Assembly: GCA_902791295.1 (NCBI GenBank) | Contig: CADAVI010000001.1 | Location: forward strand, 41,252 to 105,251 | DNA: 64,000 nucleotides | Source: an uncultured Bacteroidales bacterium | Lineage (GTDB): Bacteria; Bacteroidota; Bacteroidia; Bacteroidales; Bacteroidaceae | Direction: 5' to 3' | Shown: positions 26,600 through 52,088 of the stretch, in pieces | Layout: each line of letters opens with the position of its first letter | Position numbering within the stretch: position 1 is the first letter of the stretch | Position numbers and translations under genes: made by a program | Notes under the pieces: model-generated | Databases searched by the model: none | What the model was told of the DNA's origin: nothing | What the model saw: only the letters and a program-made list of their open reading frames with translations

Positions 26600-29047
26600 C
26601 TATCGCCCTGCTGGATCCACCTCGATGCGCTCCAGCACGATGCCGGGGTCGAGGGGCTGGAGGGTGAGGCGGTGCGAGCCTGCGGCAAGGGCTGGCAGCT
26701 GCAGGGGCTGACGGTTCTGGCGGGTGGTCTCCCACTCGAAGTTCTGGTCGTGCGCCATCTGCGTGACGAAGCGGCTGGCCTCGTTCACATTGAGTGTCTG
26801 CACCAGCTGTCCATCCAGAAGGACAGAGAGCCGCTGCCCGCGCCCATCGTTGAAGGGGAAGTTGGTGGCCAGCGTGAGGACCAGGCGTGCGCCCTCCTGA
26901 GGTTGCGCGATGCTGAAGTCGTAGCTGATGCTGGCTCCCTCGGTGCTCTTTGTGTAGGGCAAGAGGGCGATGGCGTCTTTCCACACGCCCATGTGGGGGA
27001 TGACCTGCCAGGTAGCTTCCTTCGCGTCGGCCTTCTGCACGAAGTCGGAGGCCTCGAGCACGGCCAGGCGCTCACGGGGCTGCGCCACAAAGGTCTTGCC
27101 CACGGTGGCCTCGGCAGAGTCGATGCGCGTGACGTTCGGCATGATGTTGCGTGGCGGATTGTTCCACGAGCGGTAGCCGATGTGTATCTCGTCCATCATG
27201 TGGTTCCACTTGCCACGTGCAATCTTATGGTTGTACTCGTCGCAGAGCTCAGCGTCGCGACGGAAGCAGAGCTCCGCCTTGTCGGCCCACTCGTTAGCGC
27301 GCAAGTCCTTCTGCGCAGCGTAGTAGTGGTTCATGGCCACAGCGTGGTAGAGGTTGTAGAGATTAGCGAACACACGCACGGGGTGATAGACGAGCTCGTT
27401 GTAGGTCTGGCGGTTGGGCACAGGGATGAGCTCACGCAGGATGGTGGCATCGCGTTCGAGCTTGTCGTATTCGTCCACTCGCTCCTGCCACTCTCCGGCG
27501 GCAAGGTTGAAGGTGCGCGTGTCGAGCTGTTCGGGTGTGCGGCGGTGCGCGTACTTGCACTGCAGATTGAGGATGCGCGCGGCCTCCTTGGCGCACTTGT
27601 CGCCAAACTGCTGGCGGCAGAAGCTCTCGGTGTAGTCCATCAGGTTGGCGGCGTTGAACTGTGCGGGGTTCCACGCCATGCGGAACCAGAAGTCGATGGG
27701 GAACTCCATAGGCTTCAGGTCGCCCACGTTGAGAATCCAGAGCTGATTGACGCCGTAGGTGTAGGTGAGCTGCAGCTGCTCCCACATACGCTGGATTTGT
27801 GTGACGTTCTGGAACTTGGAGTTGCGGGGCGCGCCCACATAGTCCACATGGTAGTACATGCCGTAGCCGCCGGGGTGACGGTGGGAGAAGGCGCCCGTGC
27901 CTCGGTTCCACTCCTGCTCGGGGAGGACGCGCACGTTGCCCCAGTTGTCGTCGCAGAGGAGGAGGATGACGTCGTCGGGCACTTGCATGCCTTTCTCGTA
28001 GTATTCCTGCACTTCCTTATAGAGGGCCCACACCTGTGGGGTCTCGCGGGCAGGACGGTTGGTGGCCTGTTCGATGAGCTTTCGCTGGTTGCCCACGATG
28101 CGCTCGAGAAGGGCCACGTCGGCATGGTCTCCCATGGCTTCGTCGCCGTCGCCGCGCATGCCGATGGTCACGACGTCGTCGGTGTGCTGCATACGCTCCA
28201 CGCCGGTTTTCCAGAAGCGGTCGAGAGTCTCTTGGTTCGTGTCGTAGTTCCAGGCTCCGTACTCGCGGCGGTGGCTGGTCCACTCCTTGTGGGCGCGGGC
28301 CATGGGCTCGTGGTGGGAGGTGCCCATGCAGATGCCCATGTCGTCGGCGGTCTGCATGTTGAGGGAATCGTCGGCATAGAAGGCGGCGTCCCACATGGCG
28401 GGCCACATGAAGTTGCCCTTGAGGCGGAGGACGAGCTCGAAGACACGGCTGTAGAACTCATGGTTGTAACTGCCGAAGTTTTCCTTCACCCAGCCTGTGA
28501 GGCAGGGGGCCTCGTCGTTGAGGAAGATGCCGCGGTAGCGCACGGCGGGCTCGCCGTCCGTGTAGGTGCCAGGCTTGATGTAGAGCTGGTCGTGGTGCTC
28601 GATGGGGGTGTCGGCCCAGTAGTACCAGGGGCTGACGCCTATCTGCTGTGAGAGTTCGTAGATGCCGTAGATGGTGCCTCGCTTGTCGCTGCCGGCAATG
28701 ATGAGCTGCTGGCCGTCGGTGGTGATGACGAACTTCTCGCGCTTGCCTTTCAGCTGACGGGCGATGTCGCGGTGGCGCTTGGCATACTTGTCGATGGCGG
28801 CGCTGCGGCCCAAGGTGCCGATGAGGATAGGCAGGTCTTGGCGTCCGGTTACTTGCTGGAGGTCGCGCTTGAGGTTGTCGGCGGCAAGGTGCACGCCTTT
28901 CCAGTCGTTGGGGTCGCAAAGGACTTCACCTTTCAGGTCGGTGAGGCACAGGGTGTGCGGCTCGGCCTGAAAGGTGACGAACTGTGCGGCGGCGCTGGCG
29001 GTCATTGTGATGAGGGCCAGCGCCATCGTGAGGAGTATCTGTTTCAT
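26600..29047 (-). CDS. GH115 xylan alpha-1,2-glucuronidase
   Basis: GH115 enzymes remove (4-O-methyl)glucuronic acid side chains from glucuronoxylan. The 815-residue protein has a signal peptide (MKQILLTMALALITMTASAA) and the conserved GH115 blocks: RGTIYGIYELSQQIGVSPWYYWAD, RYRGIFLNDEAP, MWPAMWDAAF, TIGMRGDGDEAM and LLCDDNWGNVR. The C-terminal part (about residues 700-815) is a beta-sandwich. It is the last gene of the xylan operon, 30 bp after xylB. It should act in the periplasm or outside the cell on glucuronoxylan fragments. Confidence 0.93.
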   Translation of the reverse strand: MKQILLTMALALITMTASAAAQFVTFQAEPHTLCLTDLKGEVLCDPNDWKGVHLAADNLKRDLQQVTGRQDLPILIGTLGRSAAIDKYAKRHRDIARQLKGKREKFVITTDGQQLIIAGSDKRGTIYGIYELSQQIGVSPWYYWADTPIEHHDQLYIKPGTYTDGEPAVRYRGIFLNDEAPCLTGWVKENFGSYNHEFYSRVFELVLRLKGNFMWPAMWDAAFYADDSLNMQTADDMGICMGTSHHEPMARAHKEWTSHRREYGAWNYDTNQETLDRFWKTGVERMQHTDDVVTIGMRGDGDEAMGDHADVALLERIVGNQRKLIEQATNRPARETPQVWALYKEVQEYYEKGMQVPDDVILLLCDDNWGNVRVLPEQEWNRGTGAFSHRHPGGYGMYYHVDYVGAPRNSKFQNVTQIQRMWEQLQLTYTYGVNQLWILNVGDLKPMEFPIDFWFRMAWNPAQFNAANLMDYTESFCRQQFGDKCAKEAARILNLQCKYAHRRTPEQLDTRTFNLAAGEWQERVDEYDKLERDATILRELIPVPNRQTYNELVYHPVRVFANLYNLYHAVAMNHYYAAQKDLRANEWADKAELCFRRDAELCDEYNHKIARGKWNHMMDEIHIGYRSWNNPPRNIMPNVTRIDSAEATVGKTFVAQPRERLAVLEASDFVQKADAKEATWQVIPHMGVWKDAIALLPYTKSTEGASISYDFSIAQPQEGARLVLTLATNFPFNDGRGQRLSVLLDGQLVQTLNVNEASRFVTQMAHDQNFEWETTRQNRQPLQLPALAAGSHRLTLQPLDPGIVLERIEVDPAGR

Positions 29048-29077
29048 GTGTATGGGGTTGGATGTGCGTGTTTGGGG

Positions 29078-30559
29078 TTATTTGCCCAGACGCTCCACCC
29101 AGAGCTTGTAGGCTGCCTTGTAGGGGGCGGCGTCGGCTTCGGGCTTGATGGTGCCTCGGTGCTTGAGGGTCTTGAAGGCGTCGTCGCTGTCCTTGTAGAT
29201 GCCGGCTCCGATGCCTGCTCCGTAGGCTGCTCCCACTGAGCCGTCGGTCTCGTAGAGCTCGATGGTGGCTCCGGTGACAGTGGCGAGGGTGCGGCAGAAG
29301 AGCGGGTTGAGGAACATATTGGCGTGTGCGGCCTTGATGGTCTGTATCTTCATGCCCATGCCTGCCATGACTTCCATGCCGTAGGCAAAGGAGAAGGCGA
29401 TGCCTTCGTGGGCGGCACGGATGAGGTGTGCCTTCTTGTGGATGTTGAAGTTGATGCCGTGAACGGATGCGCCGACGTTCTCGTTCTGGAGGACGCGCTC
29501 GGCTCCGTTGCCGAATGGGATGACTGAGAGTCCTTCGCAGCCCACGGGCACGGTTTCTGCCAGTTCGTTCATCTCTGGGTAGCTCATGCCTTCAGGCGCT
29601 ACGGTGCGGCGCATCCAGGCGTTGCAGATGCCGGTGCCATTGATGCAGAGGAGCACACCGAGACGGGTCTCGCCGTTTTCGCCGTGGTTGACGTGGGCGA
29701 AGGTGTTGACGCGTGAGAGCTTGTCGTAGTTGACTTCGCCGAGCACGCCGTACACGACGCCTGAGGTGCCGCCTGTGGCTGCTATCTCACCGGGCTTCAT
29801 GACGTTGAGCGAGAGGGCGTTGTTGGGCTGGTCGCCACCACGGTAAGCGATGGGTGTGCCTGCTGGGATGCCGAGCTCCTGAGCCACAGCGTCGCAGACG
29901 GTGCACTGCACGGAGAACGTGGGGACGATGTCGGCGATGATGCTGTCGGGGAAGCCGAAGTAGCTCATGATGTCCTTGCTCACCTCGCCGTTCTTGAAGT
30001 CCCAGAACATTCCCTCGGAGAGGCCGCTGACGGTGGTCTGCTTCTGTCCGCCCGAGAGGCGCATGGCGATGTAGTCGCCTGGGAGCATGATTTTGTCTAT
30101 CTTCTGGAAGAGCTCAGGCTCGTTGTCCTTCACCCAGGCGAGCTTGGCTGCGGTGAAGTTGCCGGGCGAGTTGAGCAGGTGCTGGAGGCACTTCTCGCCG
30201 CCGATGGCGTTGAAGGCTTCGTTGCCGTAGGGCACAGCGCGTCCGTCGCACCAGATGATGGAGGGGCGCAGGGGCTGTCCGTCCTTGTCCACGCACACAA
30301 GGCCGTGCATCTGGTAGGAGATGCCGATGGCTTTCACTTTGCTGAACGAGCCGCCTGCCTTCTCGGCGAGGCGTGCGGTGGCGCACTTGAGCTCGTCCCA
30401 CCACATGGAGGGTTCCTGCTCGGCCCATCCGGGCTGCTGCGCCACGATGGGGGCTTCGTTGTCGGGATACTGCGCACTGGCCACGGTCTGGCCTGTCTGT
30501 GCGTCTACCAGCGCCGCCTTGACTGACGACGTGCCTATGTCATAACCTAATAGTAACAT
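29078..30559 (-). CDS. xylB: Xylulokinase
   Basis: XylB phosphorylates D-xylulose to enter the pentose phosphate pathway. The 493-residue FGGY-family kinase begins MLLLGYDIGTSSVKAALVDA and shows QPGWAEQEP, the SYQMHGLVCVDKDGQ substrate block, GDYIAMRLSG, and the FGGY-type C-terminal ATP site (GAAYGAGIGAG). It is cytoplasmic. It sits in the xylan operon between GH43 and GH115, while xylose isomerase lies 20 kb away. Four 21-bp tandem repeats lie upstream. Confidence 0.93.
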   Translation of the reverse strand: MLLLGYDIGTSSVKAALVDAQTGQTVASAQYPDNEAPIVAQQPGWAEQEPSMWWDELKCATARLAEKAGGSFSKVKAIGISYQMHGLVCVDKDGQPLRPSIIWCDGRAVPYGNEAFNAIGGEKCLQHLLNSPGNFTAAKLAWVKDNEPELFQKIDKIMLPGDYIAMRLSGGQKQTTVSGLSEGMFWDFKNGEVSKDIMSYFGFPDSIIADIVPTFSVQCTVCDAVAQELGIPAGTPIAYRGGDQPNNALSLNVMKPGEIAATGGTSGVVYGVLGEVNYDKLSRVNTFAHVNHGENGETRLGVLLCINGTGICNAWMRRTVAPEGMSYPEMNELAETVPVGCEGLSVIPFGNGAERVLQNENVGASVHGINFNIHKKAHLIRAAHEGIAFSFAYGMEVMAGMGMKIQTIKAAHANMFLNPLFCRTLATVTGATIELYETDGSVGAAYGAGIGAGIYKDSDDAFKTLKHRGTIKPEADAAPYKAAYKLWVERLGK

Positions 30560-30868
30560 TTCTTTTATTCTTTTTATTTAGAGAAGCTCCTTCAGTCCAC
30601 TTGTCGAGGGTGAGGAAGACACCCTCAATCCCCCTGATGAGGGGGAAGGGAGTTAAATGGGGAGTTAAAGCGGGGCTTCTTCCCCCTCGACAGGGGAACC
30701 GATGGAGGCTTCTTCTCGTTGTTCGTAACTTATGAATAATTGTTCGCAAGTTATGAATAATTGTCCGTAAGTTTGGAATAATTGTTCACAACTTATGAAC
30801 GACTCCTGCTGCGCCTGCCTGTCCTCTTGCCTTGCGGCGCTGGGAGGGGCGGGCGTGTGGGGTTGCGA
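30560..30868 (-). other. Gap between GH43 and xylB
   Basis: The 309-bp gap holds no gene. It contains the 21-bp tandem repeats (30721-30804), a GGGGAGTTAAA pair of repeats near 30650-30670, and CCCCCTC/GAGGGGG-type inverted strings (30630-30695) that may form a hairpin. No TAnnTTTG box was found on the minus strand. Confidence 0.5.
30721..30804. repeat. Four tandem 21-bp repeats upstream of xylB
   Basis: Units begin at 30721, 30742, 30763 and 30784. The first begins GTTCGTAACTTATGAATAA; the others differ at a few positions (CGCAAGTT, CCGTAAGTTT, CACAACTT), and the last loses its AT-rich end. A 21-bp period is two helical turns, so bound proteins would line up on one face. They may be operators, for example for xylB expression, or recombination remnants. 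Confidence 0.85.
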
Positions 30869-31909
30869 CTACTTGTCCAGACCCTCGATGGTCTGAATGG
30901 TGCCGTCGGCGTTGTAGTGGAGCTCTGCCACCTTGAGGGAGCGGAGCCACGTCTTGTCGTTGGATGGCACGCAGTCGTGGTGGAAGAGGTACCACTTGCC
31001 CTTGAACTCGGCAATGGCGTGGTGTGTGGTCCAGCCCACCACGGGGGTGAGGATGACGCCCTGATAGGTGAAGGGGCCATAAGGATTGTCGCCCGTGGCG
31101 TAGCAGAGGAAGTGCGAGTCGCCGGTGGAGTATGAGAAGTAGTACTTGCCGTTGTACTTGTGCATCCACGATGCCTCGAAGAAGCGGTGAGGGTCGCTGG
31201 CCTTCAGGGGCTGGCCGTCCTTGTCGAGGATGACGACGCGGCGGGGAGCCTCGACGAACTGGAGCACGTCGCCGCTCATCTTGGCCACGAAGCTGGGCAG
31301 GGCGGGCATGTCGGGCTGGGCGAAGAGCTCGCCGCCGCGTGTGGGCTCAGAACCCATGTCCACGAGTCCGTTGTCGTCGCCATGCTTGCCGTGCACAGGC
31401 TCAAAGCCAGGGGCGAAAGGCTGTGCCCACTGGAGCTGTCCGCCCCACAGGCCGCCGAAATATACGTAGATTTGTCCGTCGTCGTCCTTGAAGGCGCAGG
31501 GGTCGATGGAGAACGAGCCACGGATGGGCTGGGGCTGTGGCTTGAAGGGGCCCTCAGGCTTGTCGGACACGGCCACGCCCAGACGGAACACGCCGTCATA
31601 GCCCTTGGCCGAGAAGATGTAGTAGTACTTGCCGTCCTTCTCCACCACGTCGCTGTCCCACAACTGCTTCTCGGCCCATGGCACATCATTCACGTCGAAG
31701 ATGACGCCGTGGTCGGTAGCCGTGCCGTTCTCCAGATCGGTGAACGAGAGCGCGTGATAGTCCTTCATCTGGAAGTGGCCGCCGTCGTCGTCCTCTTCCG
31801 CACCTGCCTCCCAGTCGTGAGAGGGGTAAATGAACAGTTTGCCGTCAAACACATGAGCCGCGGGGTCGGCCATGTAATCCTGTGGATAAAGATATTTCTT
31901 TCCTTCCAT
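30869..31909 (-). CDS. GH43 beta-xylosidase/arabinofuranosidase, cytoplasmic
   Basis: The 346-residue five-bladed beta-propeller enzyme has the three expected acidic residues: Asp15 (MADPAAHVF, base), Asp136 (SFSIDPCAF, pKa modulator) and Glu245 (FFEASWMH, acid). There is no signal peptide, so it should hydrolyse imported xylo-oligosaccharides inside the cell. It matches the size and gene context of the XynB exoxylanase of the Prevotella bryantii xyn operon, in which a symporter, a GH10 and a GH43 are adjacent. It lies third in the minus-strand operon. Confidence 0.9.
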   Translation of the reverse strand: MEGKKYLYPQDYMADPAAHVFDGKLFIYPSHDWEAGAEEDDDGGHFQMKDYHALSFTDLENGTATDHGVIFDVNDVPWAEKQLWDSDVVEKDGKYYYIFSAKGYDGVFRLGVAVSDKPEGPFKPQPQPIRGSFSIDPCAFKDDDGQIYVYFGGLWGGQLQWAQPFAPGFEPVHGKHGDDNGLVDMGSEPTRGGELFAQPDMPALPSFVAKMSGDVLQFVEAPRRVVILDKDGQPLKASDPHRFFEASWMHKYNGKYYFSYSTGDSHFLCYATGDNPYGPFTYQGVILTPVVGWTTHHAIAEFKGKWYLFHHDCVPSNDKTWLRSLKVAELHYNADGTIQTIEGLDK

Positions 31910-32158
31910 AATGATTATATTGGTTTTATGATGGTTAGTTTTGATAGGCGACGATGACGGAACGTGCGCGCCAATGGGGATTTAGCGCTGGGAGCAAGGC
32001 GCCTGGGCTTTCGCCCGAAGAGGACTTTGGCGACTGATGGCAAGCAACCAACAGATATGTCCCTAATGCCAATAGCTGTTTACGCATATACACTCGGATT
32101 TCCGTTCCTTCAGTCTTTCACACGGTCCACACCACTCGGTGCAGCCGCTTGCCCCTCA

Positions 32159-33328
32159 TCACCACCAGCTGGTGAGGCGGAGGAGCTTGTCCACGGTGGA
32201 CTTGGGCTTGCTCTCGCGGTCGAAGAGGGTGGCATACTCGGTGCGCCCCTTCACAGGCCAGTCGTTGCGCCAGGAGTTGGCATCGTTGAAGCACCAGAAG
32301 TTGACACGAAGCACGTCGTCCTTGTGGCGCATGAGCATCTTGAAGAAGTCCACCCAGAACTCGTCGGCCTTCTCCTGCTGCTCGGCAGGCAGACCATAGG
32401 TGTAGGGGTCCAGCTCCGGACGGTACTTGAAGTTAGTCGACACCTCGGCGCCCTCCATCTCGTAGGGGTTGGGCAGCACCGAGAGGTCAAGCTCCGTGAA
32501 CTGTGCCGGAATGCCCAGCTTGGCAATCTCCTGAATGGAGCGCTCGTAGAGCTTCACATAGTCCTCGGCACCCAGGAAGAGGTGTCCCTGCATGCCGATG
32601 GCATGGATGGGGAGTCCCTGCTTGATGAGCGGACGGAAGAAGTCGATGACGCCCTTCAGCTTCTCGGGCTTGTACATGGAATAGTCGTTGTAGTAGAGCT
32701 CGATGGTGGAGTCGGCCTCGTGGGCATACTGGAAGGCGAGCGGAATGAACTCCTCGCCCAGTATCTCGTAGAACTTGGAGTGGCGCAGGGTGCCGTCGTC
32801 CTCAAAGGCTTCGTTCACCACGTCCCACGCCTCCACCTTGCCGCGGAAGTGGTTGAGGATGGCGAAGATGTGGTCGTGCATGCGCTGCTTGAGCACCTCG
32901 GCGCTCACCTGGTTGCCCTCCTTGTCCACAAAGAACCAAGGGGCGCACTGTGAGTGCCAAATGAGGCAGTGGCCCACCACGTGCTGACCGTTAGCCAGCG
33001 CCTTCTCCACCAGCTCGTCGGCCAGCGTGAAGTCATACACCTCTTCCTCGGGATGGATGACCTCGCACTTCATGCAGTTCTCGGGCACCACCCAGCCAAA
33101 GTGCTTGGCGATGATGGGATAGTCGGCCGTCTGGTCCAGGCTGCTGGCGCCAGAGTAGGTCACGCCTGCCTTCTTCTCCAGCTCGGCCTTCACCTCCCAC
33201 TGGTTCACACTCACGCCCATGCGGAAATAGTCGGCATAAGCCTCCTGCAAGGAGCAGTTGTTGCGGCAGCAGCTTGCGCTCAAGAGGGACACAAGCGCCA
33301 CGGTAGTAACAATAATGCTTTTCTTCAT
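32159..33328 (-). CDS. GH10 endo-1,4-beta-xylanase
   Basis: The 389-residue protein has a signal peptide with a Cys-rich end (LLSASCCRNNC), so it may be a lipoprotein. The GH10 catalytic residues are Glu173 in WDVVNEAFED (acid/base) and Glu279 in FTELDLS (nucleophile), with the supporting motifs HCLIWHSQ and NDYSMY. It cuts the xylan backbone or larger xylo-oligosaccharides. It lies between the symporter and GH43 genes. A 250-bp gap (31910-32158) separates it from GH43; the gap holds a GGGC-TTTC-GCCC hairpin near 32005 but no clear promoter. Confidence 0.95.
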   Translation of the reverse strand: MKKSIIVTTVALVSLLSASCCRNNCSLQEAYADYFRMGVSVNQWEVKAELEKKAGVTYSGASSLDQTADYPIIAKHFGWVVPENCMKCEVIHPEEEVYDFTLADELVEKALANGQHVVGHCLIWHSQCAPWFFVDKEGNQVSAEVLKQRMHDHIFAILNHFRGKVEAWDVVNEAFEDDGTLRHSKFYEILGEEFIPLAFQYAHEADSTIELYYNDYSMYKPEKLKGVIDFFRPLIKQGLPIHAIGMQGHLFLGAEDYVKLYERSIQEIAKLGIPAQFTELDLSVLPNPYEMEGAEVSTNFKYRPELDPYTYGLPAEQQEKADEFWVDFFKMLMRHKDDVLRVNFWCFNDANSWRNDWPVKGRTEYATLFDRESKPKSTVDKLLRLTSWW

Positions 33329-33501
33329 TGCGTAGATGTAAGTACTTTTCTATATGGATATTTGTGTTGTTGCTCTGTCAGAATACGGGGCGCCGCCCTC
33401 GGGAGAGCGGGCCATGCGCTGCAGTCAACGCGGCTGTGGCGCGGAGGAGCGGCACCCCCACCCTGCGGATGGGAGCACCGCCGCTGCGCTATGGGGTGGG
33501 C

Positions 33502-34911
33502 TTACGCCTTGTGGCGCGCCTCAATCTCGCGGTTCATCTCGTCCAGACGCTCGTCGGTGAGAGGATAGCGGTATATCAGGAATCCTACGATAATGAGCAG
33601 GATGGCTGGAATGATGCAGGTGAACCAAAGGATGGCGTTCTGCGCAATCTCGGAATAGTTAGCCAGCTTGGTGTAGTAGGCATTGACCGGAGCGCTGATG
33701 AACGACGCCAGGAACACCACCACAAACACGCTCAGCACGAGCTGCAAGCTCTTGTTGGCACGGAACTCGGCAAACATCTCGCCGTAGGTGACTGGCTTCT
33801 CGGGCGTGGTGGCGATTCTCTCCTTGCAGCCTGTGAAGCAGAACAGCAGGAGCACGAAGCCTACCAGCGCAAAGATGCCCGTGACAGCGAACCATGCGTT
33901 GGGGGCAATGGGCAGAGCTGACTCCTCGCTGGCCAAGTCGAAGCCAATGAGACCCATCACCAGCGGCGTGATCCAGCCGGCAATGGAGAAGCCTGCCTTG
34001 AAGGCGACGCCAGCCAGTGCGTTGACCGTAGCGGCGGGGCGGTTGCCCGTGCGGTACTCGGCCTCGGTGATGACCTCTGGCACCAGCGCCCACATCAGGG
34101 AGCCCACCAGCAGACCCACACCGGTCATGACCTTAGCCACCTGCACGATGGTGTTGCAGTCGGCCACGTCGAAGAACTTGCCGATGACATACAGCGCCAC
34201 AAAGCCCACGAAACCGATGGTGAGCAGCAGGTAGTAGAGACCCTTCTTGCCCAGCAGCGACTTCAGCGCGGGCAGCGAGGGCAGGATGACGAATGCAGGG
34301 ATGGTACCAATGGCCATGAACGTGGCTTGGTTCCAGTCGATGGCCGTGTGCACCACGATGGCAAGTCCGATGGGGAAGCCTGCCTGCACCACAATCTGGC
34401 CAATGTTGGCACACACCATACGGGTGGAGGTGAGCTTCAGCACCTCGTCGTTGTCGCGCGTCATGCTCGCCATGATAGAGCCGTAAGGGATGTTGACCAC
34501 AGAATAGATCATGCTGAGCACGGTGTAGCTCACCGTCGCATAGATAATCTTCGCCGTCATGTCCCACTCAGCAGCCTGAGGGAGCATGAGCAAGCACGCT
34601 GCCACCGTGAGCGGAATGCCGCCATAGAGCAGATAGGCACGATACTTGCCCAGCTTCGGATTGCGGTTGTCAATATAACGGCCCACCACAGGACTCCAGA
34701 AGCAGTCGATGAGACGCACGGAGAGAATGAGTCCGCTCACAAAAGCCGGACTAATCTTTAACACGGTGGTGAGGTAAAGCATCAAGTAGCATGCTACCGT
34801 CTGGAAAATAAGGTTCTGGGCCAAGTCGCCAGAACCGTAGCCGATGCGCTGAAGCCAGCTCAGCTTGTAGAAGCCGTTGGCCTCTTGTGGTTGTGTAGTT
34901 TTTTCTGACAT
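33502..34911 (-). CDS. Pentoside/xyloside:cation symporter (GPH family)
   Basis: The 469-residue membrane protein has about 12 hydrophobic segments and belongs to the glycoside-pentoside-hexuronide:cation symporter family of the MFS. Visible are the N-terminal LSWLQRIGYGSGDLAQN block, RLIDCFWSPVVGRYIDNRNP, and the long C-terminal helices ending in RYPLTDERLDEMNREIEARH. It is the equivalent of XynD of Prevotella bryantii and should bring xylo-oligosaccharides across the inner membrane. It is the first gene of the xylan operon and follows the only -7 box found for it. Confidence 0.9.
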   Translation of the reverse strand: MSEKTTQPQEANGFYKLSWLQRIGYGSGDLAQNLIFQTVACYLMLYLTTVLKISPAFVSGLILSVRLIDCFWSPVVGRYIDNRNPKLGKYRAYLLYGGIPLTVAACLLMLPQAAEWDMTAKIIYATVSYTVLSMIYSVVNIPYGSIMASMTRDNDEVLKLTSTRMVCANIGQIVVQAGFPIGLAIVVHTAIDWNQATFMAIGTIPAFVILPSLPALKSLLGKKGLYYLLLTIGFVGFVALYVIGKFFDVADCNTIVQVAKVMTGVGLLVGSLMWALVPEVITEAEYRTGNRPAATVNALAGVAFKAGFSIAGWITPLVMGLIGFDLASEESALPIAPNAWFAVTGIFALVGFVLLLFCFTGCKERIATTPEKPVTYGEMFAEFRANKSLQLVLSVFVVVFLASFISAPVNAYYTKLANYSEIAQNAILWFTCIIPAILLIIVGFLIYRYPLTDERLDEMNREIEARHKA

Positions 34912-35441: not shown

Positions 35442-37106
35442 TCACAGCCGCTCGAGGAAGTACACGCCCACCTTGCGGTCGAACGCCTCTTCCAGCTTGT
35501 CGAGGAGGACGCTGCCGAAGTAGTGTGTGAAGCTCTCGTGAAAGGCGCGGGTGGGCACGGCAATCGTCACCATGTCGGCCTCCACCTGATAGAGTCCAAT
35601 CTCGGGCAGCCAGTTCTCAATGCCCTGCATGTCGGCAAGGCTCTCCTTGGCCTCGATGAAGCGGCGGCGGTCCTCATCGGTATAGAGCTGCGTGAGCGTG
35701 CCCTTGCCCACAGTCTTGCCACCCGCTGCGGAGCCTGCCTGAGCGCCTTGTGCCCCATAGACACCTGTGCCGTTGCCGCTGCCTGCCTGAGCGCTGCCCT
35801 CGGCACCGCTGTCAGCACCAGCACTGGCGCCGTTCTGTGCTCCAGCGCCGCGCGCCTTGATGTCGTTGGCCATCTGCTCCTCCATCTGGCGCTCCTTGTC
35901 GGCAATGCGCGTGTGGAGGAAGTCGGTGAAGCAGCGGTTGCAGTAGGAGCGCTTGTTGTCCTTAATCTGCACCTTCTTGGCATCGATGAGCTCCTTCAGC
36001 TCGTCCATCTTGCGGGTGAAGGGCTCGCGGTCGTCGGGCGTGAGGGAGGTGATGATGCGCCGCACCTGTGCCGGCGACTGGTCGAAGTCCTGCTGCAAGC
36101 GGTGCTCTATCTCGATGGTCTCGCGCTGCGAGGTCTTGTCTTGCTTGATGTCCTGTCCCACGTCGGAGAGGTGGAACTCGAAGTGAATCTGGTCGGGGTT
36201 CTTCTGGCGCTTCGAGGTCTTGTAGATGGGGGTGTACTCGAAGTAGAAGTCGCTGATGTTGCTCTCGGCCATCTCCTTGAGCGTCGTCTCGGAAGGACGC
36301 AGCACGCGCTTGACGAAGTCGCAGTAGTGGGGGTACTGGATGACGCGCTCCTTGGTCTTGGCGTCCACCTCGTTGTCGTTGAACCCGATGTCGTGGCGGA
36401 ACTTCCAGTAGTCGATGGTCAGGCCACCCTGCATATACTTGAAGTTGGACAGGTAGAGGTAGATGCGCTTGGGGAACTTCTCGGAAATCATCAGCGCGGT
36501 GTCGTCGATGAAGTCGTAGATGCGTCCGTCGTTGGGGAAGAGCACGTTGACCACCTCCTTGCTCATGATGACGGTGAACACGGGCGAGCGGTTCTTGTAC
36601 TTGTAGGTCTGCCGCCCCGTCTGCGGATCGATGACGATGTCCACATTCTCGGAACCGATGTCGAAGAACGACTTGCGTATCATGATGTCGGTGCCGTCGT
36701 CCTTCTTGGCAGGCACCCACACTTTGGCGTCGGCGATGGTGCAGACGGCCTTGAATGCCTGGTTATAGTGCGGCGTGTCCACACCCAGCTCCTTGAGGTG
36801 GATGTCGAAGGCCAGGTCGCCGTCGCGCAGGTAGTCCTTCTTCACACCCTCGTTGTCGAAGATGCTCAGCTGGATGGGCTTCGGGCGGAACTGTCCGTCG
36901 CGCATTCCCTTGATGGCGCCACGCAGCTTGCGCAGCACGGCAATCACCACGTTCTGCTGGAAGGCGGTGGCCTCGTAGCCGTTCACAGCCAGCGCCAAGG
37001 GCTGGTAGAGCAGGTTGTCCTTCGTGAGGATGATGTCCTCCCGCTTCTGCTTCTTTGTCTTTCGGGCGGCAGGCTTCCCTGCCCCACCCTGTTCGTTGTT
37101 TGCCAT
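35442..37106 (-). CDS. RepB/Rep_3-family replication initiator
   Basis: The 554-residue protein looks like an iteron-binding initiator of the Rep_3/RepB superfamily. After a basic N terminus (KPAARKTKKQKRED) come two winged-helix-like regions (about residues 30-200 and 210-330), with LYLSNFKYMQGGLTIDYWKFRHDIGF as the typical helix-turn-helix block of the second. A YCNRC pair lies near residue 388, an Ala/Gly-rich linker at about 425-470, and a conserved C-terminal part (YFGSVLLDKLEEAFDRKV). It would melt the origin and load the helicase. Its upstream region carries two iteron families. Long initiators of this type are encoded on the second chromosome of several Prevotella species. Confidence 0.88.
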   Translation of the reverse strand: MANNEQGGAGKPAARKTKKQKREDIILTKDNLLYQPLALAVNGYEATAFQQNVVIAVLRKLRGAIKGMRDGQFRPKPIQLSIFDNEGVKKDYLRDGDLAFDIHLKELGVDTPHYNQAFKAVCTIADAKVWVPAKKDDGTDIMIRKSFFDIGSENVDIVIDPQTGRQTYKYKNRSPVFTVIMSKEVVNVLFPNDGRIYDFIDDTALMISEKFPKRIYLYLSNFKYMQGGLTIDYWKFRHDIGFNDNEVDAKTKERVIQYPHYCDFVKRVLRPSETTLKEMAESNISDFYFEYTPIYKTSKRQKNPDQIHFEFHLSDVGQDIKQDKTSQRETIEIEHRLQQDFDQSPAQVRRIITSLTPDDREPFTRKMDELKELIDAKKVQIKDNKRSYCNRCFTDFLHTRIADKERQMEEQMANDIKARGAGAQNGASAGADSGAEGSAQAGSGNGTGVYGAQGAQAGSAAGGKTVGKGTLTQLYTDEDRRRFIEAKESLADMQGIENWLPEIGLYQVEADMVTIAVPTRAFHESFTHYFGSVLLDKLEEAFDRKVGVYFLERL

Positions 37107-37179
37107 ATAATATATATATGTATGGAAATTATTCTTATGTATGTATAGGTCCTTTTCTTGATGAATAGACGATGATGCT

Positions 37180-37317
37180 CTTGAAGCACGCTCAGTAGTA
37201 CCCTTGACAGATGCTCGTTAGCAACCTTGTAGCACGCTCAGCAATACCCTTGACGGATGCTCGTTAGCAACCTTGAAGTATATCCAGAGATACCCTTGAT
37301 GCTATGTCGGCCACATT
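37180..37317 (+). repeat. Six 23-bp direct repeats (CTTGA family) next to rep
   Basis: CTTGA or CTTGT starts at 37180, 37203, 37226, 37249, 37272 and 37295, exactly 23 bp apart. Units alternate between two types: one contains AGCACGCTCAG and ends TACC, the other contains GATGCTCGTTAGCAAC, so a 46-bp super-repeat is visible. The last two are decayed. They lie 70-210 bp upstream of the rep start and may serve in autoregulation or as a second binding region. Confidence 0.85.
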
Positions 37318-37392
37318 CCTGACGCTCCTGCACGCTCCTCTTTGTTCCTCTGTGGCACGCTGCCTTGCTCGAGTTCCGGGGCATCGGGCATG

Positions 37393-37810
37393 TAACTAAT
37401 CTGTCCGACAGCGCTCCTCTCTTATTTCGCGCCCGCAGTAACTAATTTGTCCGACGGTGCGTCATTCTTCCCTCGCAGTCATGTAACTAACTTGTCCGAC
37501 GACGCTCTGTCCCTTCTCCTGCACCGCAGTAACCAATCCGTCCGACGAGTTTCCATCTGTCGTAGTTCACCGCAGTAACTAACTTGTCCGACGAGTGTTC
37601 ATCCTTCCTTCGCCACCCATGTAACTAATCCGTCCGACGAGTGCGCCTTCTCACTAACTTGTCCGATGGCGCTAACTAATCTGTCCCACGAACGTGCTGA
37701 ATGTCACTCTTTTGTCCGATGAAAGGCACTAAGTTGTCCGACAACTGTAACCAATCTGTCCTACGAACACTCACTATCCTGTCCGACGAATGTCACTAAC
37801 TTGTCCGATG
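37393..37810 (+). repeat. Thirteen 18-bp iterons (consensus TAACTAATCTGTCCGACG)
   Basis: Copies start at 37393, 37439, 37484, 37530, 37576 and 37622 (45-46 bp apart), then 37651, 37673, 37704, 37726, 37748, 37771 and 37793 (mostly 22-23 bp apart). The core TGTCC is unchanged in nearly all; the left half varies between TAACTAA, TAACCAA and TCACTAA. All point the same way. A partial copy lies at about 37961-37974 and an inverted copy (CATCGGACAAATTAGTAA) at 38021-38038. This is the layout of a plasmid iteron origin. Confidence 0.93.
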
Positions 37811-38229
37811 ACTCACCCTTATTCCTATTGTCTTTCAGCACGTTACGATTTGCCATATATATACATCCTTTTCTAATACTATTCAAACTAACATATCGAA
37901 TCGAATGTTTTTCTGAGTGAAAAGAACTGGATGTAGGGGGTAAAACGGCTAAGTTCCTGTGGTTTTGTCCGATATCAGCCCTACCCTTTCGGGTCATTTC
38001 GGGGGTGTCGGCAAGAATTTCATCGGACAAATTAGTAAGAACGTATCGCTTCGCACGTATTTGTACAGTTGTTTCGGGTGCAAATGTCATGGCGAGGGTC
38101 CTCTTTCGTTCGTTTTGCTTAGGTTTCGGCGCTTTTCCGGCTGACTCGCGGGGCTTGTGAGGCTTTGCTCTTCGTGGTCAGGGCGCTTTGTTCGCCGTCT
38201 CTTGCCCGTTCAGCCTTGCTGCGTGAGGA

Positions 38230-38577
38230 TTAGTATGCCTTCTCTGCGCGCGACTTGATTTCGTCGTAGTGCTTGTTGAGGAACTCCTGCACGGCATCAT
38301 AGACGATGTCCTCCAGTGTAGTCTTCTCGCCGATGATGCTCTTCCAGTTCTTGATTTCGTTCAGACGCAGGGTGGTCATGCGGTCGAAATGGATGCACTT
38401 CTGGTCGGGGCGCTCCTTCTTGCGGTCGAACACCTTCACCTCTTTCTTCTTGGGGTGCTCCTCGATGGGTGCGAGGGTTTCGAGGATGGACGGCGTGTTG
38501 GCACGCTGTGCCTCGATGCGCTCGTCAAACTCCTGCATGGACTTGCCCAGGTCGATGGTCTTTCTTTTTACTGCCAT
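38230..38577 (-). CDS. Small ParB-like partition protein
   Basis: The 115-residue basic protein has a disordered N terminus rich in charged residues and a C-terminal helical part (RMTTLRLNEIKNWKSIIGEKTTLEDIVYDAVQEFLNKHYDEI) that resembles the ribbon-helix-helix or DUF3408-type ends of Bacteroides plasmid and transposon proteins. It follows parA on the same strand by 225 bp. Small proteins encoded behind ParA usually are centromere-binding partners, which is the basis of the call. No ParB nuclease-like domain is present. Confidence 0.6.
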   Translation of the reverse strand: MAVKRKTIDLGKSMQEFDERIEAQRANTPSILETLAPIEEHPKKKEVKVFDRKKERPDQKCIHFDRMTTLRLNEIKNWKSIIGEKTTLEDIVYDAVQEFLNKHYDEIKSRAEKAY

Positions 38578-38801
38578 AGCTCTTGTTTCCTAGTTTTACA
38601 GTTTTCTATATTTATATCTTCCGATAATCTTAGTTTCCTACGTTGCTGAGGTTCAGCGTGATGTTGTTTTCAGGCAGTGGAACTGCTGCTCGTTGAGGTG
38701 CGGTTTGCCTCTCCCTTAGACTGTAGTAATTCGTTCTTGATGCCTGTGTGCCACGGCCTTTTTCCGCGTAGCCCCACTCCGTCATTCTGCTTTCGCCTGT
38801 T

Positions 38802-39578
38802 CTACTTCTTGGCGGTGGAGCGGCGCTTGATGCCGGTGATTTCGCGTGCCAGCTGCATGTAGTCTTCGGCTCCGATGGCGGTGGGGTTGTAGTCGAAGAT
38901 GGTCATGTGTTCGGCAGGTGTCTTCGAGAGGTCGGTGTTGCGCCGTATGCGTGCGTTGAACACTTGTCCGGGATACTTCTGCTGCATCTGTGCTGCCGCC
39001 ATCTTGTGCAGTCCCAGGCGTCCGTCGAAACGGGTGAGGAGGTAGCCCTCGATTTCCAGTTCGGGGTTGATGAATTCCTTCACTTCGTGGAACTTGTCGG
39101 TAATCATCTTCATGCCCTGGAGCGAATAGACCTCGCAGTCGATGGGCACGAGGATGGAGTCGCTGGCCGACATGGCGTTGATGTTCAGAATTCCTCCGTT
39201 GGGCGGGCAGTCCAGCAGCACGTAGTCGTAGAGTTCGGCGTAGGGCTGGATAATGCGCTTGAGGATTTCCTCTTTGCGGAGGCGGTTGACGAGCTGTTCG
39301 CCCACGTTCTCCAGCTGGATGCTGGCGGGCACAAAGTCAAAGCCTTCCTTGTATTCGTAGATGGGCAGTTCGGCAGGTTCTTTCGCCGTGAGGGCGTCAA
39401 AGATGGTTTCGCCGTCGCCCACTTCAAAGTTGAGCGTGTAGGTGGTGTTGCACTGGAAGTCGAGGTCCACGAGCAGCACTTTCTTCTTCAGCAGGTGCAG
39501 GGCAGCGCCCAGATTGATGGCTGTTGTGGTCTTTCCCACACCTCCCTTGAAGTTCAATATTGCTATAGTCTTTGCCAT
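38802..39578 (-). CDS. parA: ParA-family partition ATPase
   Basis: The 258-residue protein starts MAKTIAILNFKGGVGKTTTA with the deviant Walker A motif KGGVGKTT (residues 11-18), then Walker A' VLLVDLDFQCNTT and Walker B YVLLDCPP, and the C-terminal RRSTAKK. There is no N-terminal helix-turn-helix, so it is of the small ParA (type Ib) or Soj kind. With the downstream small partner and the Rep gene it forms a complete partition and replication module. A -7 box TATATTTG lies 32 bp upstream (39610-39617). Confidence 0.92.
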   Translation of the reverse strand: MAKTIAILNFKGGVGKTTTAINLGAALHLLKKKVLLVDLDFQCNTTYTLNFEVGDGETIFDALTAKEPAELPIYEYKEGFDFVPASIQLENVGEQLVNRLRKEEILKRIIQPYAELYDYVLLDCPPNGGILNINAMSASDSILVPIDCEVYSLQGMKMITDKFHEVKEFINPELEIEGYLLTRFDGRLGLHKMAAAQMQQKYPGQVFNARIRRNTDLSKTPAEHMTIFDYNPTAIGAEDYMQLAREITGIKRRSTAKK

Positions 39579-40421: not shown

Positions 40422-40892
40422 ATGACTGGAAAGATGATGAAAGAAGTGAAATCATTCAGGACAGTGGCTACGGCGGAGTCGTGCACGGGCGGTCGCATTG
40501 CGGCGGCTATCACGGCGAAGAGCGGGGCGAGCCGGTATTTCATGGGTGGGCTTGTGGCCTATCAGGATGAGGTGAAGGAGCGCATGCTGGGTGTGCCTCA
40601 CGAGATGATTGAGCAGTACGGGGTGGTGTCGCGCCAGGTGGCGGAGCAGATGGTGCGGGGTGCGTGCCGGCTGTTCGGCACGGAGTGTGCGATGGCATCC
40701 ACGGGCTATGCGGAGGCGTGGGAGGGTCATCAGGTGGAAATCTGGGTGGCTTGGGGTACGGAGTCGGAGGTGCATTCGATGTGCTTGCGCGAGGACTTCG
40801 GACGTGTGAAGAATGTGGAGGTGGCCACGAAGTATGTGCTGGATAAGTATATGGAGTTTTGCGAAGCGCTGGATAAGGAGCGGAGAAGATAA
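40422..40892 (+). CDS. pncC: CinA C-terminal domain protein, NMN amidohydrolase type
   Basis: The 156-residue protein is a stand-alone CinA_C domain, which in the family deamidates nicotinamide mononucleotide to nicotinic acid mononucleotide in NAD recycling. It shows VATAESCTGGRIAAAIT, YFMGGLVAYQDEVKERMLGVP, YGVVSRQVAEQM and a STGYAEAWEG stretch where most members have STGIAGP, so the substrate loop is altered. The MoCF_biosynth domain of full CinA is absent. An in-frame ATG at 40437 is an alternative start. Confidence 0.85.
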   Translation: MTGKMMKEVKSFRTVATAESCTGGRIAAAITAKSGASRYFMGGLVAYQDEVKERMLGVPHEMIEQYGVVSRQVAEQMVRGACRLFGTECAMASTGYAEAWEGHQVEIWVAWGTESEVHSMCLREDFGRVKNVEVATKYVLDKYMEFCEALDKERRR

Positions 40893-41060
40893 GAGAGGAT
40901 AGGGAAAGGACTGGAGTGGAAAGTGAAACAGGGCGGAAGAGGAGAGAGGGATAGAACCGGCGAGGGGAAGGAAATGGGACTGGCGAGGTAGGGGCAATTG
41001 GCTGGAGAGGGTGTATCGTCCAGCGGAAAGTGGATGTAGAGGAAACAGAGAAAGACAATG

Positions 41061-41085
41061 AAAGGCAGGGATGACCTGCCTTTTT
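41061..41085 (+). terminator. Rho-independent terminator after pncC
   Basis: AAAGGCAGG (41061-41069) pairs with CCTGCCTTT (41075-41083) around a short loop, followed by T. Confidence 0.8.
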
Positions 41086-41110
41086 GTGTTGTAGATGATG
41101 GTGTGTTGTG

Positions 41111-41247
41111 TGTGGGTATGCCTCCATCCTTAGTGTAAAGGAGGTGATGCGTGTAGCTTTATTTCTTTATCAGTGTACGGTGTGGGTGCTTCTGTCCTTA
41201 GTGTAGGGGAGGTAATGCGTGCATCTCATTTCTCCATTAGTGTACGG
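41111..41247. repeat. Two tandem repeats of about 68 bp
   Basis: Units 41111-41180 and 41181-41247 both run from TGTGGGT through CCTTAGTGTA and GAGGT(G/A)ATGCGTG to AGTGTACGG. They lie at the 3' end of the patatin gene; the rest of the 40893-41259 gap is otherwise empty apart from the terminator. Confidence 0.75.
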
Positions 41248-41259
41248 TGTGGGGTGCAC

Positions 41260-42108
41260 TTACGCTTCGAGGAAGGCTTTGACGGTGCTGAGCATGGCAA
41301 GGCCTTTTTCTTGTCCGTGTGCGTAGATGGCGCGTAGCTTGTCTTCGTTGAGTTCGATGCGTCCGATGTCGAGGGGATGGTCGGGGTAGATGACGAGGGT
41401 GTTGCCGGCTTGGGCGGATGCCTCGACGTGGCGCAGCTGGGAGTTGTAGAGCTCGTGGCGGCGGGCCATGAGTTGTGCCACTTTGGGGTGGCGGGGATGG
41501 AAGAGGCGGAAGAGGGGGATGAGTTTGGCAGGCTGCTTCTGGTAGCCTCGCGGGCGGGTGAGGATGACGATGTTGCGCTCGTAGCCCTCGTCCTGGAAGT
41601 GCTTCAGGGGGATGCAGTCGGAGAGTCCGCCGTCCAGCAGCAGCTGTCCGTCGATGCAGACGGGGCGTGAGGCGATGGGCATGGAGCCGGTGGCTCGGAA
41701 CCACTCGAGGGTGTGGTCTTCCACGTGGGAGATGCGGTGATAGACGGGCTGTCCGGTCACGATGTCGGTGCACACCACCTGAAATTCGGCCGGATCGGCG
41801 GCGAAGGTGTCGGTGTCGAAGCGGTCCAGCTGCAGGGGCATGGTGTGGTAGGCAAATTGGGCGTTGACGAAGTTGCCCGTGGTGAGGAAGGAGCGCAGTC
41901 CCATGTATCGGGGGTCGTTCTTGAAGCGGATGTTGTAGCGCAGTCCGCGGCCGGGCTGGTGCGACTTGAAGTTGCATCCAAACAGGGCGCTGCCCGACAC
42001 GCTCATGATGCCGTCCACGCGGATGCCGTTCTGCAGCATCACGTCGAGAAAGCCTTCGGAGAAGAGGGCGCGCATGCCGCCTCCCTCCATGACCAGTCCT
42101 TTTTTCAT
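41260..42108 (-). CDS. Patatin-like phospholipase (YjjU-type) with altered nucleophile motif
   Basis: The 282-residue protein begins MKKGLVMEGGGMRALFSEGFLD, giving the oxyanion-hole Gly-rich motif, and has the catalytic Asp in LLLDGGLSDCIPL. The usual GxSxG around the nucleophile reads SVSGS (GIMSVSGSALFG), which keeps the Ser but replaces the flanking Gly residues. It has no signal peptide, so it should be a cytoplasmic acyl hydrolase; DUF6363 or a similar C-terminal tail follows. It has its own -7 box and diverges from the next gene. Activity is plausible but the changed motif leaves doubt. Confidence 0.85.
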   Translation of the reverse strand: MKKGLVMEGGGMRALFSEGFLDVMLQNGIRVDGIMSVSGSALFGCNFKSHQPGRGLRYNIRFKNDPRYMGLRSFLTTGNFVNAQFAYHTMPLQLDRFDTDTFAADPAEFQVVCTDIVTGQPVYHRISHVEDHTLEWFRATGSMPIASRPVCIDGQLLLDGGLSDCIPLKHFQDEGYERNIVILTRPRGYQKQPAKLIPLFRLFHPRHPKVAQLMARRHELYNSQLRHVEASAQAGNTLVIYPDHPLDIGRIELNEDKLRAIYAHGQEKGLAMLSTVKAFLEA

Positions 42109-50774: not shown

Positions 50775-52088
50775 TTAAGCGTACATTGCAACGATAGCCT
50801 CGTAGAGCTCCTGCTTGCCAGAAGTCTGCTTTGGCTCGCCTACTTTCTTGCCATACTCGTAAGCCTGCTCGAGGGTGAGCTTGCCGTCTTCGAAGTCCTT
50901 GCCGATGCCGTTGTCGAATGAAGCGTAGCGAGCAGCCTTCATAGCCTTGTATGGAGACTCTTCGAGGAGCTTAGCAGCTGACTCGAGTGCGCGTGCCATA
51001 GCGTCCATGCCTGCGATGTGTGCGATGAAGATGTCTTCGAGGTCGGTAGAGTTACGGCGAGTCTTAGCGTCGAAGTTCGTGCCGCCTGTGCCGAGACCGC
51101 CGCCACGGATGATTTCCATCCAAGCCTGAACGAGCTCGTACTGGTCGATTGGGAACTGGTCGGTATCCCAGCCGTTCTGGTAGTCACCACGGTTGGCGTC
51201 GATAGAGCCGAGCATGCCGTTGTCCACTGCCACTGCGAGTTCGTGCTCGAAGGTGTGGCCGGCGAGAGTAGCGTGGTTCACCTCGATGTTCACCTTGAAG
51301 TCCTTGTCGAGGTTGTGTGCCTTGAGGAAGCCGATGACTGTCTCAGTGTCAACGTCATACTGGTGCTTAGATGGCTCCATTGGCTTAGGCTCGATGAGGA
51401 ATGTGCCCTTGAAGCCCTTTGCGCGAGCGTAGTCGCGTGCCATAGTGAGCATAGTGGCCATGTGCTCCTTCTCGCGCTTCTGGTCGGTGTTGAGGAGGCT
51501 CATGTAGCCTTCGCGTCCGCCCCAGAACACGTAGTTCTCTGCGCCGAGCTTGATGCCTGCGTCGATAGCGTTCTTGATCTGCACGATAGCGCGAGCTACG
51601 ACGTCGAAGTCAGGGTTGGTAGAAGCACCGTTCATGTAGCGGCCGTTGCCGAACACGTTGGCAGTTGACCACAGGAGCTTGATGCCAGTTTCCTTCATCT
51701 TCACAGCGAGGTAGTCTGTGATAGCCTTGAGGTTTGCCTCGTACTCTTCCACTGATGCGCCTTCAGACACGAGGTCCACGTCGTGGAAGCAGAAGTATGG
51801 GATGCCGAGCTTCTGCATGATTTCGAAACCAGCGTCAGCTTTCTGTTTTGCGATTTCTACAGCGTCAGCGCCGTTGTTCCAAGGGAACTTCTTGGTGCCG
51901 CCACCGAACTGGTCGCCGCCTTCAGCGCAGAGGGTGTGCCACCATGCCATAGCGAAGCGGAGCCAGTCCTTCATAGGCTTGCCCATGATGACCTTCTCTG
52001 GGTCATAGTAGTGGAAAGCCATTGGGTTCTTGCTGTCCTTGCCTTCAAACTTGATTTTGCCAATCTCTGGAAAAAACTCTTTAGCCAT
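50775..52088 (-). CDS. xylA: Xylose isomerase
   Basis: XylA converts D-xylose to D-xylulose for XylB. The 437-residue class II enzyme begins MAKEFFPEIGKIKFEG and shows the catalytic His region YFCFHDVDLVSEG, NYVFWGGREGY, and the metal-binding LIEPKPMEPSKHQYD block. The start at 52088 gives the normal N terminus; an upstream in-frame ATG at 52151 lies within the promoter and is rejected. The gene has its own promoter and terminator, and is 20 kb away from xylB. Codon choice is less GC-rich at third positions than that of neighbours (many GCT, GGT and GTT on the coding strand), as expected for a highly expressed gene. Confidence 0.97.
   Translation of the reverse strand: MAKEFFPEIGKIKFEGKDSKNPMAFHYYDPEKVIMGKPMKDWLRFAMAWWHTLCAEGGDQFGGGTKKFPWNNGADAVEIAKQKADAGFEIMQKLGIPYFCFHDVDLVSEGASVEEYEANLKAITDYLAVKMKETGIKLLWSTANVFGNGRYMNGASTNPDFDVVARAIVQIKNAIDAGIKLGAENYVFWGGREGYMSLLNTDQKREKEHMATMLTMARDYARAKGFKGTFLIEPKPMEPSKHQYDVDTETVIGFLKAHNLDKDFKVNIEVNHATLAGHTFEHELAVAVDNGMLGSIDANRGDYQNGWDTDQFPIDQYELVQAWMEIIRGGGLGTGGTNFDAKTRRNSTDLEDIFIAHIAGMDAMARALESAAKLLEESPYKAMKAARYASFDNGIGKDFEDGKLTLEQAYEYGKKVGEPKQTSGKQELYEAIVAMYA

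What the first reader, a model, noticed from the sequence alone, without database searches (positions are those of the whole stretch)
35442..39578. Complete Rep-iteron-ParA module among core genes: possible chromid origin
A RepB-family initiator, about 900 bp of iterons, ParA and a small partner protein lie together, as in a low-copy plasmid. Yet within 35 kb on either side are single-copy core genes (nrdD, the full thiamin pathway, metF, holB, ricT, xylA). This would fit the origin of a secondary chromosome, known in several Prevotella species, better than a dispensable plasmid. An integrated plasmid is the alternative, but no integrase or attachment site is seen.
Basis: partly seen in the sequence, partly recalled or inferred. 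Interest (0 to 1): 0.8.

Follow-up and report, generated by a model that had tools for sequence, protein, structure and literature searches.

The report
Replication origin of a second circle
The sequence holds the replication and partition genes of what looks like a separate circular DNA molecule of a little over 105,000 bases in an uncultured gut bacterium, a molecule that also carries core genes (one for a DNA polymerase subunit) which related species keep on their main chromosome.

Summary
The module is real: a Rep protein (35442-37106), 13 direct iterons (37393-37811) plus one inverted copy (38020-38038), a 115-aa partner and a ParA, all under purifying selection; six of eight close relatives keep iterons beside rep, a seventh on another contig. 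It most likely is the origin of a separate circular replicon. Long rep-bearing contigs look circularly permuted: genes near the two ends of the window's 105-kb contig lie together in Rep-bearing G518 and Rep-less G360 and G295; the end genes of a 135-kb contig (G462) are near neighbours in two other Rep-bearing assemblies; two contigs of G308 close to about 206 kb. These contigs share genes with each other but, at 55% identity or more, none with sampled chromosomal stretches, and carry holB (one copy per genome), metF, ricT and, in some, nrdD. In Rep-less G360 the ricT-to-cinA genes are one chromosomal block. Against a textbook chromid: GC about 4 points above the chromosome, no skew turn, gene content unlike the Prevotella nigrescens 568-kb replicon. 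The window's contig is mis-binned and belongs to a genus that contains Candidatus Minthosoma. Rep has a C-terminal domain resembling DnaA domain I (below significance). Which way the block moved is unresolved.

The parts
35442..37106 (-). Rep initiator, 554 aa: Rep_3-like N-terminal/central part, helical stretch and linker, C-terminal DnaA-domain-I-like domain (residues about 475-551, DNA 35454-35684)
   Evidence: dN/dS 0.08-0.18 against four relatives
37107..37160 (.). A+T-rich stretch just upstream of rep (candidate melting region/promoter; inferred)
   Evidence: sequence; similar TATACATATATATTATAT before rep in L022
37180..37299 (.). second repeat family, 5 copies of about 23 bp, between iterons and rep
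37393..37811 (+). 13 direct iterons, consensus TAACTAAYYTGTCCGACGA (at most 4 mismatches)
   Evidence: conserved in relatives
38020..38038 (-). single inverted iteron TTACTAATTTGTCCGATGA near the partner gene; candidate autoregulation or copy-control site (inferred)
38230..38577 (-). 115-aa partner of ParA, helical C-terminal half; weak ribbon-helix-helix resemblance (no Foldseek hit below E 3.9)
   Evidence: dN/dS 0.05-0.10 against two relatives
38802..39578 (-). ParA ATPase, 258 aa
   Evidence: 88-97% identical in 7 of 45 genomes of genus g38, all of which carry the close Rep; dN/dS 0.02-0.05 against three relatives
26600..34911 (-). xylan genes beside rep: xylB, GH10, MFS transporter (Pfam), and two genes that I recall as GH115 (26600-29047) and GH43-like (30869-31909), not tested
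   Evidence: beside rep in L020-L023 and L026, in part in L027
3152..5359 (+). nrdD on the same contig
   Evidence: same contig as rep in G308 and G518, other contigs in G255, G202 and G385, not found in G462
40422..42108 (.). cinA (+) and patatin-like gene (-); cinA is one edge of the block that is chromosomal in Rep-less G360
50775..52151 (-). xylA (also on G462:C22; not found on the G308 contigs)
56424..59894 (+). metF, holB, ricT
60457..64000 (+). trmH-like gene and two-component regulator at the contig's right end, which appears to join the contig's left end

Best explanation
The module is the replication origin and partition locus of a separate circular secondary replicon (about 106 kb here, about 135 and 206 kb in two relatives). 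Rep binds the direct iterons, melts the A+T-rich stretch beside its own gene and, through its DnaA-domain-I-like C-terminus, helps bring in the DnaB helicase; the inverted iteron may serve autoregulation or copy control; ParA and the 115-aa partner segregate the circle. Because the circle holds the only copy found of holB, plus metF and ricT, its loss should be lethal, so it works like a chromid. In Rep-less relatives its conserved genes lie on the chromosome (one block in G360), so the circle probably arose when a plasmid replicon and that block were excised together. Shown by computation: module, conservation, circular permutation by synteny, one holB per genome. Inferred: melting, helicase recruitment, autoregulation, essentiality, direction of the move.
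For: Circular permutation: the trmH-like gene near the right end of C1 and the first two genes of its left end lie 3.7 kb apart on G518:C71, on the same strand (11.2-12.0 kb; 4.3-7.5 kb), and trmH, the regulator and the left-end gene follow each other with one extra gene between in Rep-less G360 and G295. End genes of G462:C22 are near neighbours in G308:C7 (two genes between) and, with one G462 gene missing, adjacent in C1. G308 C28 and C7 share an exact 87-bp dovetail, and their other junction is a 163-bp repeat between iterons and rep. Confinement: of reciprocal best hits at 55% or more between G308 and G462 samples, C28 to C22 26, C7 to C22 29 (all left of 92.3 kb), control to control 16, mixed 0 (19 G308 and 35 G462 control stretches). 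HolB: one match in each of 8 close-Rep genomes, on the rep contig in G308 and G462. Close Rep in 8 of 45 g38 genomes; close ParA in 7 of these 8 and in no other of the 45. dN/dS 0.02-0.18. C-terminal domain: best Foldseek hits are DnaA domain I 4tps (E 0.010) and 2wp0 (0.11); DciA is also listed.
Against: No contig has overlapping ends of its own; closure rests on synteny and one dovetail. The C1 junction is confirmed in G518 only among nine other genomes: in G462 the two parts are on one contig but about 47 kb apart, in G308 on C28 and C7, in G537 only one left-end gene is beside trmH, in G255, G202, G385 and G347 they are on different contigs, and G528 has no left-end hit. Strand-corrected 4-fold GC skew shows no turn (C1 left 0.051, right 0.055; G462 left -0.007, right 0.041; control sd 0.11). 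GC differs from the chromosome by 3.7-4.1 points. In six of eight close-Rep genomes holB is on another contig than rep. G308:C7 continues from the iterons through the repeat into chromosome-like DNA (GC 0.488), a misjoin or a real integration. DnaA-I and RHH matches are below significance.
Confidence: 0.8

Rival explanations
1. The module is an old plasmid replicon integrated in the main chromosome and kept there; the flanking core genes are simply chromosomal.
For: The ricT-to-cinA genes form a chromosomal block in Rep-less G360 (306-kb contig) and lie among other genes on G282:C25. G308:C7 runs from iterons through a repeat into chromosome-like DNA. No skew turn.
Against: C1, G462:C22 and the G308 pair end where the order is continuous in relatives, at different points. 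Of the called genes in the first 100 kb of G360:C1, those with a hit of 45% or more on the rep contigs all lie at 44.6-79.7 kb. Rep, partner, ParA and iterons are all conserved, which a silent insertion would not need.
Confidence: 0.12
2. A dispensable megaplasmid that carries extra copies of housekeeping genes.
For: Plasmid-type Rep and ParA; the relative pE2-28 (205 kb, typed non-mobilizable, though with genes I recall as conjugation-type) has the same kind of module; no tRNA gene in 454,700 bases of rep contigs; GC differs from the chromosome.
Against: One holB in each of 8 close-Rep genomes; the rep contigs share a conserved gene set over species.
Confidence: 0.07
3. Assembly or binning artefact: the contig is a chimera.
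For: C1 is in the wrong bin.
Against: The same module and neighbours occur in separate assemblies, among them roe deer rumen and horse faeces by their titles. C1 is close to g38 genomes at each place tested: left end 83-88% DNA, NrdD 97%, Rep and ParA, HolB 91%.
Confidence: 0.01

Closest known systems
Prevotella nigrescens FDAARGOS_1486 567,798-bp replicon (NZ_CP082843.1) and the second chromosomes of oral Prevotella such as P. intermedia (PMC4755523)
   Same: Circular secondary replicon of a Bacteroidales host with a related initiator and many core genes; lowest E-value of the 37 plasmid records found (2e-15, 22% identity over 60% of Rep). PMC4755523 (abstract and passages) reports a Rep_3 protein and essential genes on the second chromosome.
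   Different: Gene content is not shared beyond the control rate. The Rep there is 388 aa and lacks the C-terminal domain. PMC4755523 reports no plasmid-maintenance genes and no iteron-like repeats near rep in P. intermedia; here both are present.
Prevotella sp. E2-28 plasmid pE2-28 (NZ_CP091789.1, 205 kb)
   Same: Same kind of layout: small ORF, ParA, 22-bp iterons with a similar core (GTTACTAATTTGTGGCGA against GTAACTAATTTGTCCGACGA), Rep
   Different: 21% identity in Rep, 388 aa without the C-terminal domain; no core-gene block in the 21 kb read
Bacteroides plasmids such as pBF9343
   Same: Rep about 23-24% identical
   Different: Rep 385 aa without the C-terminal domain; 36.6-kb plasmid typed conjugative

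Membership tests
Chromid (three criteria as stated in PMC12456017) | plasmid-type replication and partition system | tested here: met
   Rep, iterons, ParA, partner
Chromid | core genes that sit on the chromosome in other species | tested here: met
   holB, metF, ricT, cinA on the rep contigs and in the chromosomal block of G360
Chromid | GC within 1% of the chromosome (Chromid-Finder setting) | tested here: not met
   C22 0.534 against control mean 0.497 (33 stretches); C28 0.5315 against 0.491 (19 stretches)
Chromid | similar genome signature (dinucleotide distance) | tested here: met
   C22 chunks 20.7-33.5 against control mean 27.2, sd 8.7; C28 28.3-44.0 against 31.4, sd 9.5; but one G308:C7 chunk (59.7) exceeds the control maximum of 51.0
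Chromid | separate replicon | tested here: met
   circular permutation by synteny and one dovetail, not by closed reads
Chromid | cannot be lost | not testable with these tools
   one holB per genome only suggests it
Rep_3 initiator family | Rep3_C profile match | tested here: inconclusive
   9 of 9 members match Rep3_C, best E 2.2e-5; window copy 17.7 bits against cut-off 21.1
Rep_3 initiator family | two winged-helix domains | tested here: inconclusive
   model mean pLDDT 50, N-terminal half unreliable
DnaA domain I (C-terminal domain of this Rep) | fold and sequence of DnaA domain I | tested here: inconclusive
   Foldseek 4tps E 0.010, prob 1.00; DnaA_N in 2 of 6 members, best E 0.026; no DnaA among PDB sequence hits
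ParA partition ATPase | ParA/MinD-type P-loop ATPase beside a small partner | tested here: met
   AAA_31 2.6e-50; partner conserved beside it, its RHH fold unproven
Prevotella second chromosome | shared gene content with the P. nigrescens replicon | tested here: not met
   3/62, 3/86, 1/65, 1/29, 0/25 genes against 12/195 and 15/250 in controls at 35% identity or more

The most novel reading that the evidence does not exclude
A core-gene replicon caught near its birth: a plasmid origin took a contiguous chromosomal block (ricT-holB-metF to cinA, about 35 kb in G360) with it and closed as a separate circle. The rep module is kept in nine species-level genomes (circularity argued for three), the circle growing to 106-206 kb and rearranging inside its own bounds, while sister species hold the block on the chromosome, or have taken it back. 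Its initiator joins a plasmid Rep to a DnaA-like helicase-recruiting domain.
Probability: 0.4. Interest if true: 0.75.

Novelty: new variant of a known kind. Interest (0 to 1): 0.6.

Why it matters
How secondary chromosomes arise (plasmid capture of core genes or splitting of a chromosome) is argued mostly from large, old chromids (recalled). Here one genus has species with the block on the chromosome and species with it on a plasmid-type circle, so the step can be compared directly. In Prevotella intermedia the origin of the second chromosome was left unknown (PMC4755523, passages); a complete Rep-iteron-ParA module in a related lineage gives a model to test. A plasmid-type Rep with a DnaA-domain-I-like tail would also suggest how such circles tap the host's helicase.

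Tried and rejected
Rejected: small mobile plasmid (core genes linked over tens of kb); chimera inside the contig. Led nowhere: shared gene content with the P. nigrescens replicon; skew turn; tRNA and Rfam in the window, none found; symmetric inversion around rep, judged by eye, gave no clear pattern; chromosomal excision scar: G308:C11 matches the left flank of the G360 block but continues into other genes, so no scar was shown. The tree of metF, holB, ricT and one more gene puts the three Rep-bearing rows plus G347 (no Rep hit) apart from the other Rep-less rows with weak support only (36 and 40). The tRNA script counted heading lines; recounted by hand from its list: 7 tRNAs in 1,021,400 control bases (1 in G308, 6 in G462), 0 in 454,700 bases of rep contigs and 0 in G308:C7. 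In one search, before all of C7 was fetched, 8 hits linked control stretches with G462:C22; 7 were C7 itself and 1 (G308:C10) was no longer reciprocal-best once C7 was complete. The output was cut, so parts of G222, G295 and G347 were not seen there. Gene calls on fetched DNA come from a home-made ORF caller; gene names in the flanks of G282, G269, G360 and G308:C7 are by eye.
Full report
Observation. ParA is a clear ParA-type ATPase. The Rep has no confident Pfam or NCBIfam name, but nine of nine aligned relatives match Rep3_C weakly. The iterons are 13 direct copies over about 420 bp plus one inverted copy; elsewhere in the MAG the pattern gives one hit. The named core genes are present, thiG being untested at a laxer cut-off.

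Which organism. The window is the right-hand 64 kb of contig C1 (105,251 bp) of a 145-contig MAG. NrdD of C1 is 97% and 95% identical to G255 and G518 (genus 'g38') but 76-79% to the genomes of the MAG's own genus g1 that gave a full-length match, and the MAG holds a second NrdD on C62 with a fragment on C29 and a second HolB on C6. So C1 is mis-binned.

Distribution. Close Rep (79% or more over the main stretch) is in 8 of 45 held g38 genomes, 42-44% in 2, 25-29% in 8, none in 27 at 1e-8. Of 139 g1 genomes searched, G000 included, the next best match is 48%. Close ParA (88-97%) is in 7 of 45, all with close Rep; a more distant ParA (36-55%) is widespread, 42 of 45 genomes having some match at 1e-40. 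Rep, partner and ParA lie together in six of the eight close loci; in G308 parA, partner and iterons are on another contig than rep, and L024 is cut off. Iterons, an inverted copy and the order are kept in L020-L023, L025 and L026, and on G308:C7. dN/dS is 0.08-0.18 for Rep (four pairs), 0.05-0.10 for the partner (two), 0.02-0.05 for ParA (three).

Circle. Stretches of the long rep contigs were joined and compared. The genes at the two ends of G462:C22 (134,809 bp) are near neighbours in G308:C7 (27838 and 32489, two genes between) and, with one G462 gene missing, adjacent in C1 (2587 and 4078); the same two are neighbours in Rep-less G360. C1 begins and ends inside a run that in G360 and G295 reads trmH, regulator, one 514- or 485-aa gene absent from C1, left-end gene. 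At DNA level trmH and the two left-end genes fall on G518:C71 in matching orientation, 3.7 kb apart; the other eight genomes do not confirm this or are uninformative, as listed under evidence against. The last 93 bp of C1 are a dispersed repeat that in several genomes lies near contig ends, which may explain the break. In G308, C28 and C7 overlap by exactly 87 bp at one pair of ends, in agreement with the G462 order; at the other, an inserted element with ATACATATA on both sides (by eye) separates iterons (C7) from rep (C28), and C7 then runs into chromosome-like DNA. That join is either an assembly error at the element or a real recombination into the chromosome. The closed unit would be about 206 kb.

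Confinement and core genes. Between sampled G308 and G462 proteins no reciprocal hit of 55% or more links C28, C7 or C22 with a control stretch, against 55 among them and 16 between controls. HolB has one match in each of 8 close-Rep genomes; it shares a contig with rep in G308 and G462 (and in C1), and lies on another contig in the other six, whose rep contigs are 4.9-55.3 kb long. NrdD shares a contig with rep in C1, G308 and G518, lies on other contigs in G255, G202 and G385, and was not found in G462; G528 and G537 were not searched for it. Rep contigs hold no tRNA; the control rate would predict about three, so this is weak.

Chromosomal counterpart. In Rep-less G360 the genes from ricT to cinA lie at 44.6-79.7 kb of a 306-kb contig. 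The left flank matches control contigs G308:C18 and C11 well, the right flank only by two weak matches (56% and 47%). Within the 100 kb read, no called gene outside the block has a hit of 45% or more on the C1, G462:C22, G308:C28 or C7 proteins. In G418 the block is split by other genes. G282 and G269 show it in an order close to that of the circle, next to other genes that look chromosomal by eye. I infer that the block and a plasmid replicon became a circle; the reverse, return to the chromosome in several lineages, is not excluded.

Initiator. The model of Rep is poor except for residues about 475-551 and part of the helical stretch; the best structural matches are DnaA domain I (4tps, 2wp0), with the DciA helicase loader also among the top 14 and unrelated proteins between them. 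Pfam DnaA_N is found in 2 of 6 members below significance and PDB sequences give no DnaA. A profile of the domain finds it in six divergent g1 Reps (E 1.3e-9 to 8e-6 in a set of 33 sequences) but not in the 385-388-aa Reps of pBF9343, pE2-28 and P. nigrescens, nor clearly in the 25-29% Reps of g38. The role in helicase recruitment is inferred from DnaA.

Against. No skew turn, GC 3.7-4.1 points above controls (6.4 for C7 left of 93 kb), no shared gene content with the P. nigrescens replicon, no closed read. I therefore call it a core-gene secondary replicon that works like a chromid, and do not file it as a chromid in the strict sense.

Literature seen. PMC4755523: abstract and passages. PMC12456017: abstract and passages. 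Searches for Prevotella with chromid or chromosome II terms, 'schism hypothesis' with 'chromid' and 'Minthosoma' were seen as listings only; by title and start of abstract none describes this replicon.

Noticed in passing
G000 contigs C1, C62, C29, C6: The MAG carries two NrdD and two HolB types: contig C1 is mis-binned from another genus.
   Followed up: yes
L103-L111 (G418:C8, G360:C12, G450:C27, G175:C55, G239:C17 and others): A second, divergent Rep type (25-29%), with a ParA of 41-45% on the same contig in G360, G418, G239 and G450, in four genomes (G360, G175, G239, G418) about 5.5-8.3 kb from a ribonucleotide-reductase-like ORF of about 700 aa; G385 and G528 hold both Rep types.
   Followed up: partly
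window 14466-14511, 40160-40243, 53159-53221: Palindromic 23-bp repeats of the GCGCACGGTGCGC type scattered between genes of the contig.
   Followed up: no
L092 (G308:C28 end) and L191 (G308:C7 about 93 kb): A MITE-like element of roughly 290 bp between iterons and rep in G308, with chromosome-like DNA beyond its second, partial copy: possible integration of the whole circle, or a misjoin.
   Followed up: partly
window 37180-37299: Five copies of a second 23-bp repeat between iterons and rep, not seen by eye in L020-L023.
   Followed up: no
window 37836-37910: A TTCGATTCGAT-type motif and a short ATATATGGCA..CGTAAC..CTGA stretch between the inverted and the direct iterons, seen by eye in several relatives too.
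   Followed up: no
window 63908-64000 (last 93 bp): A dispersed repeat found in G347, G462, G308 and others, often close to contig ends.
   Followed up: partly
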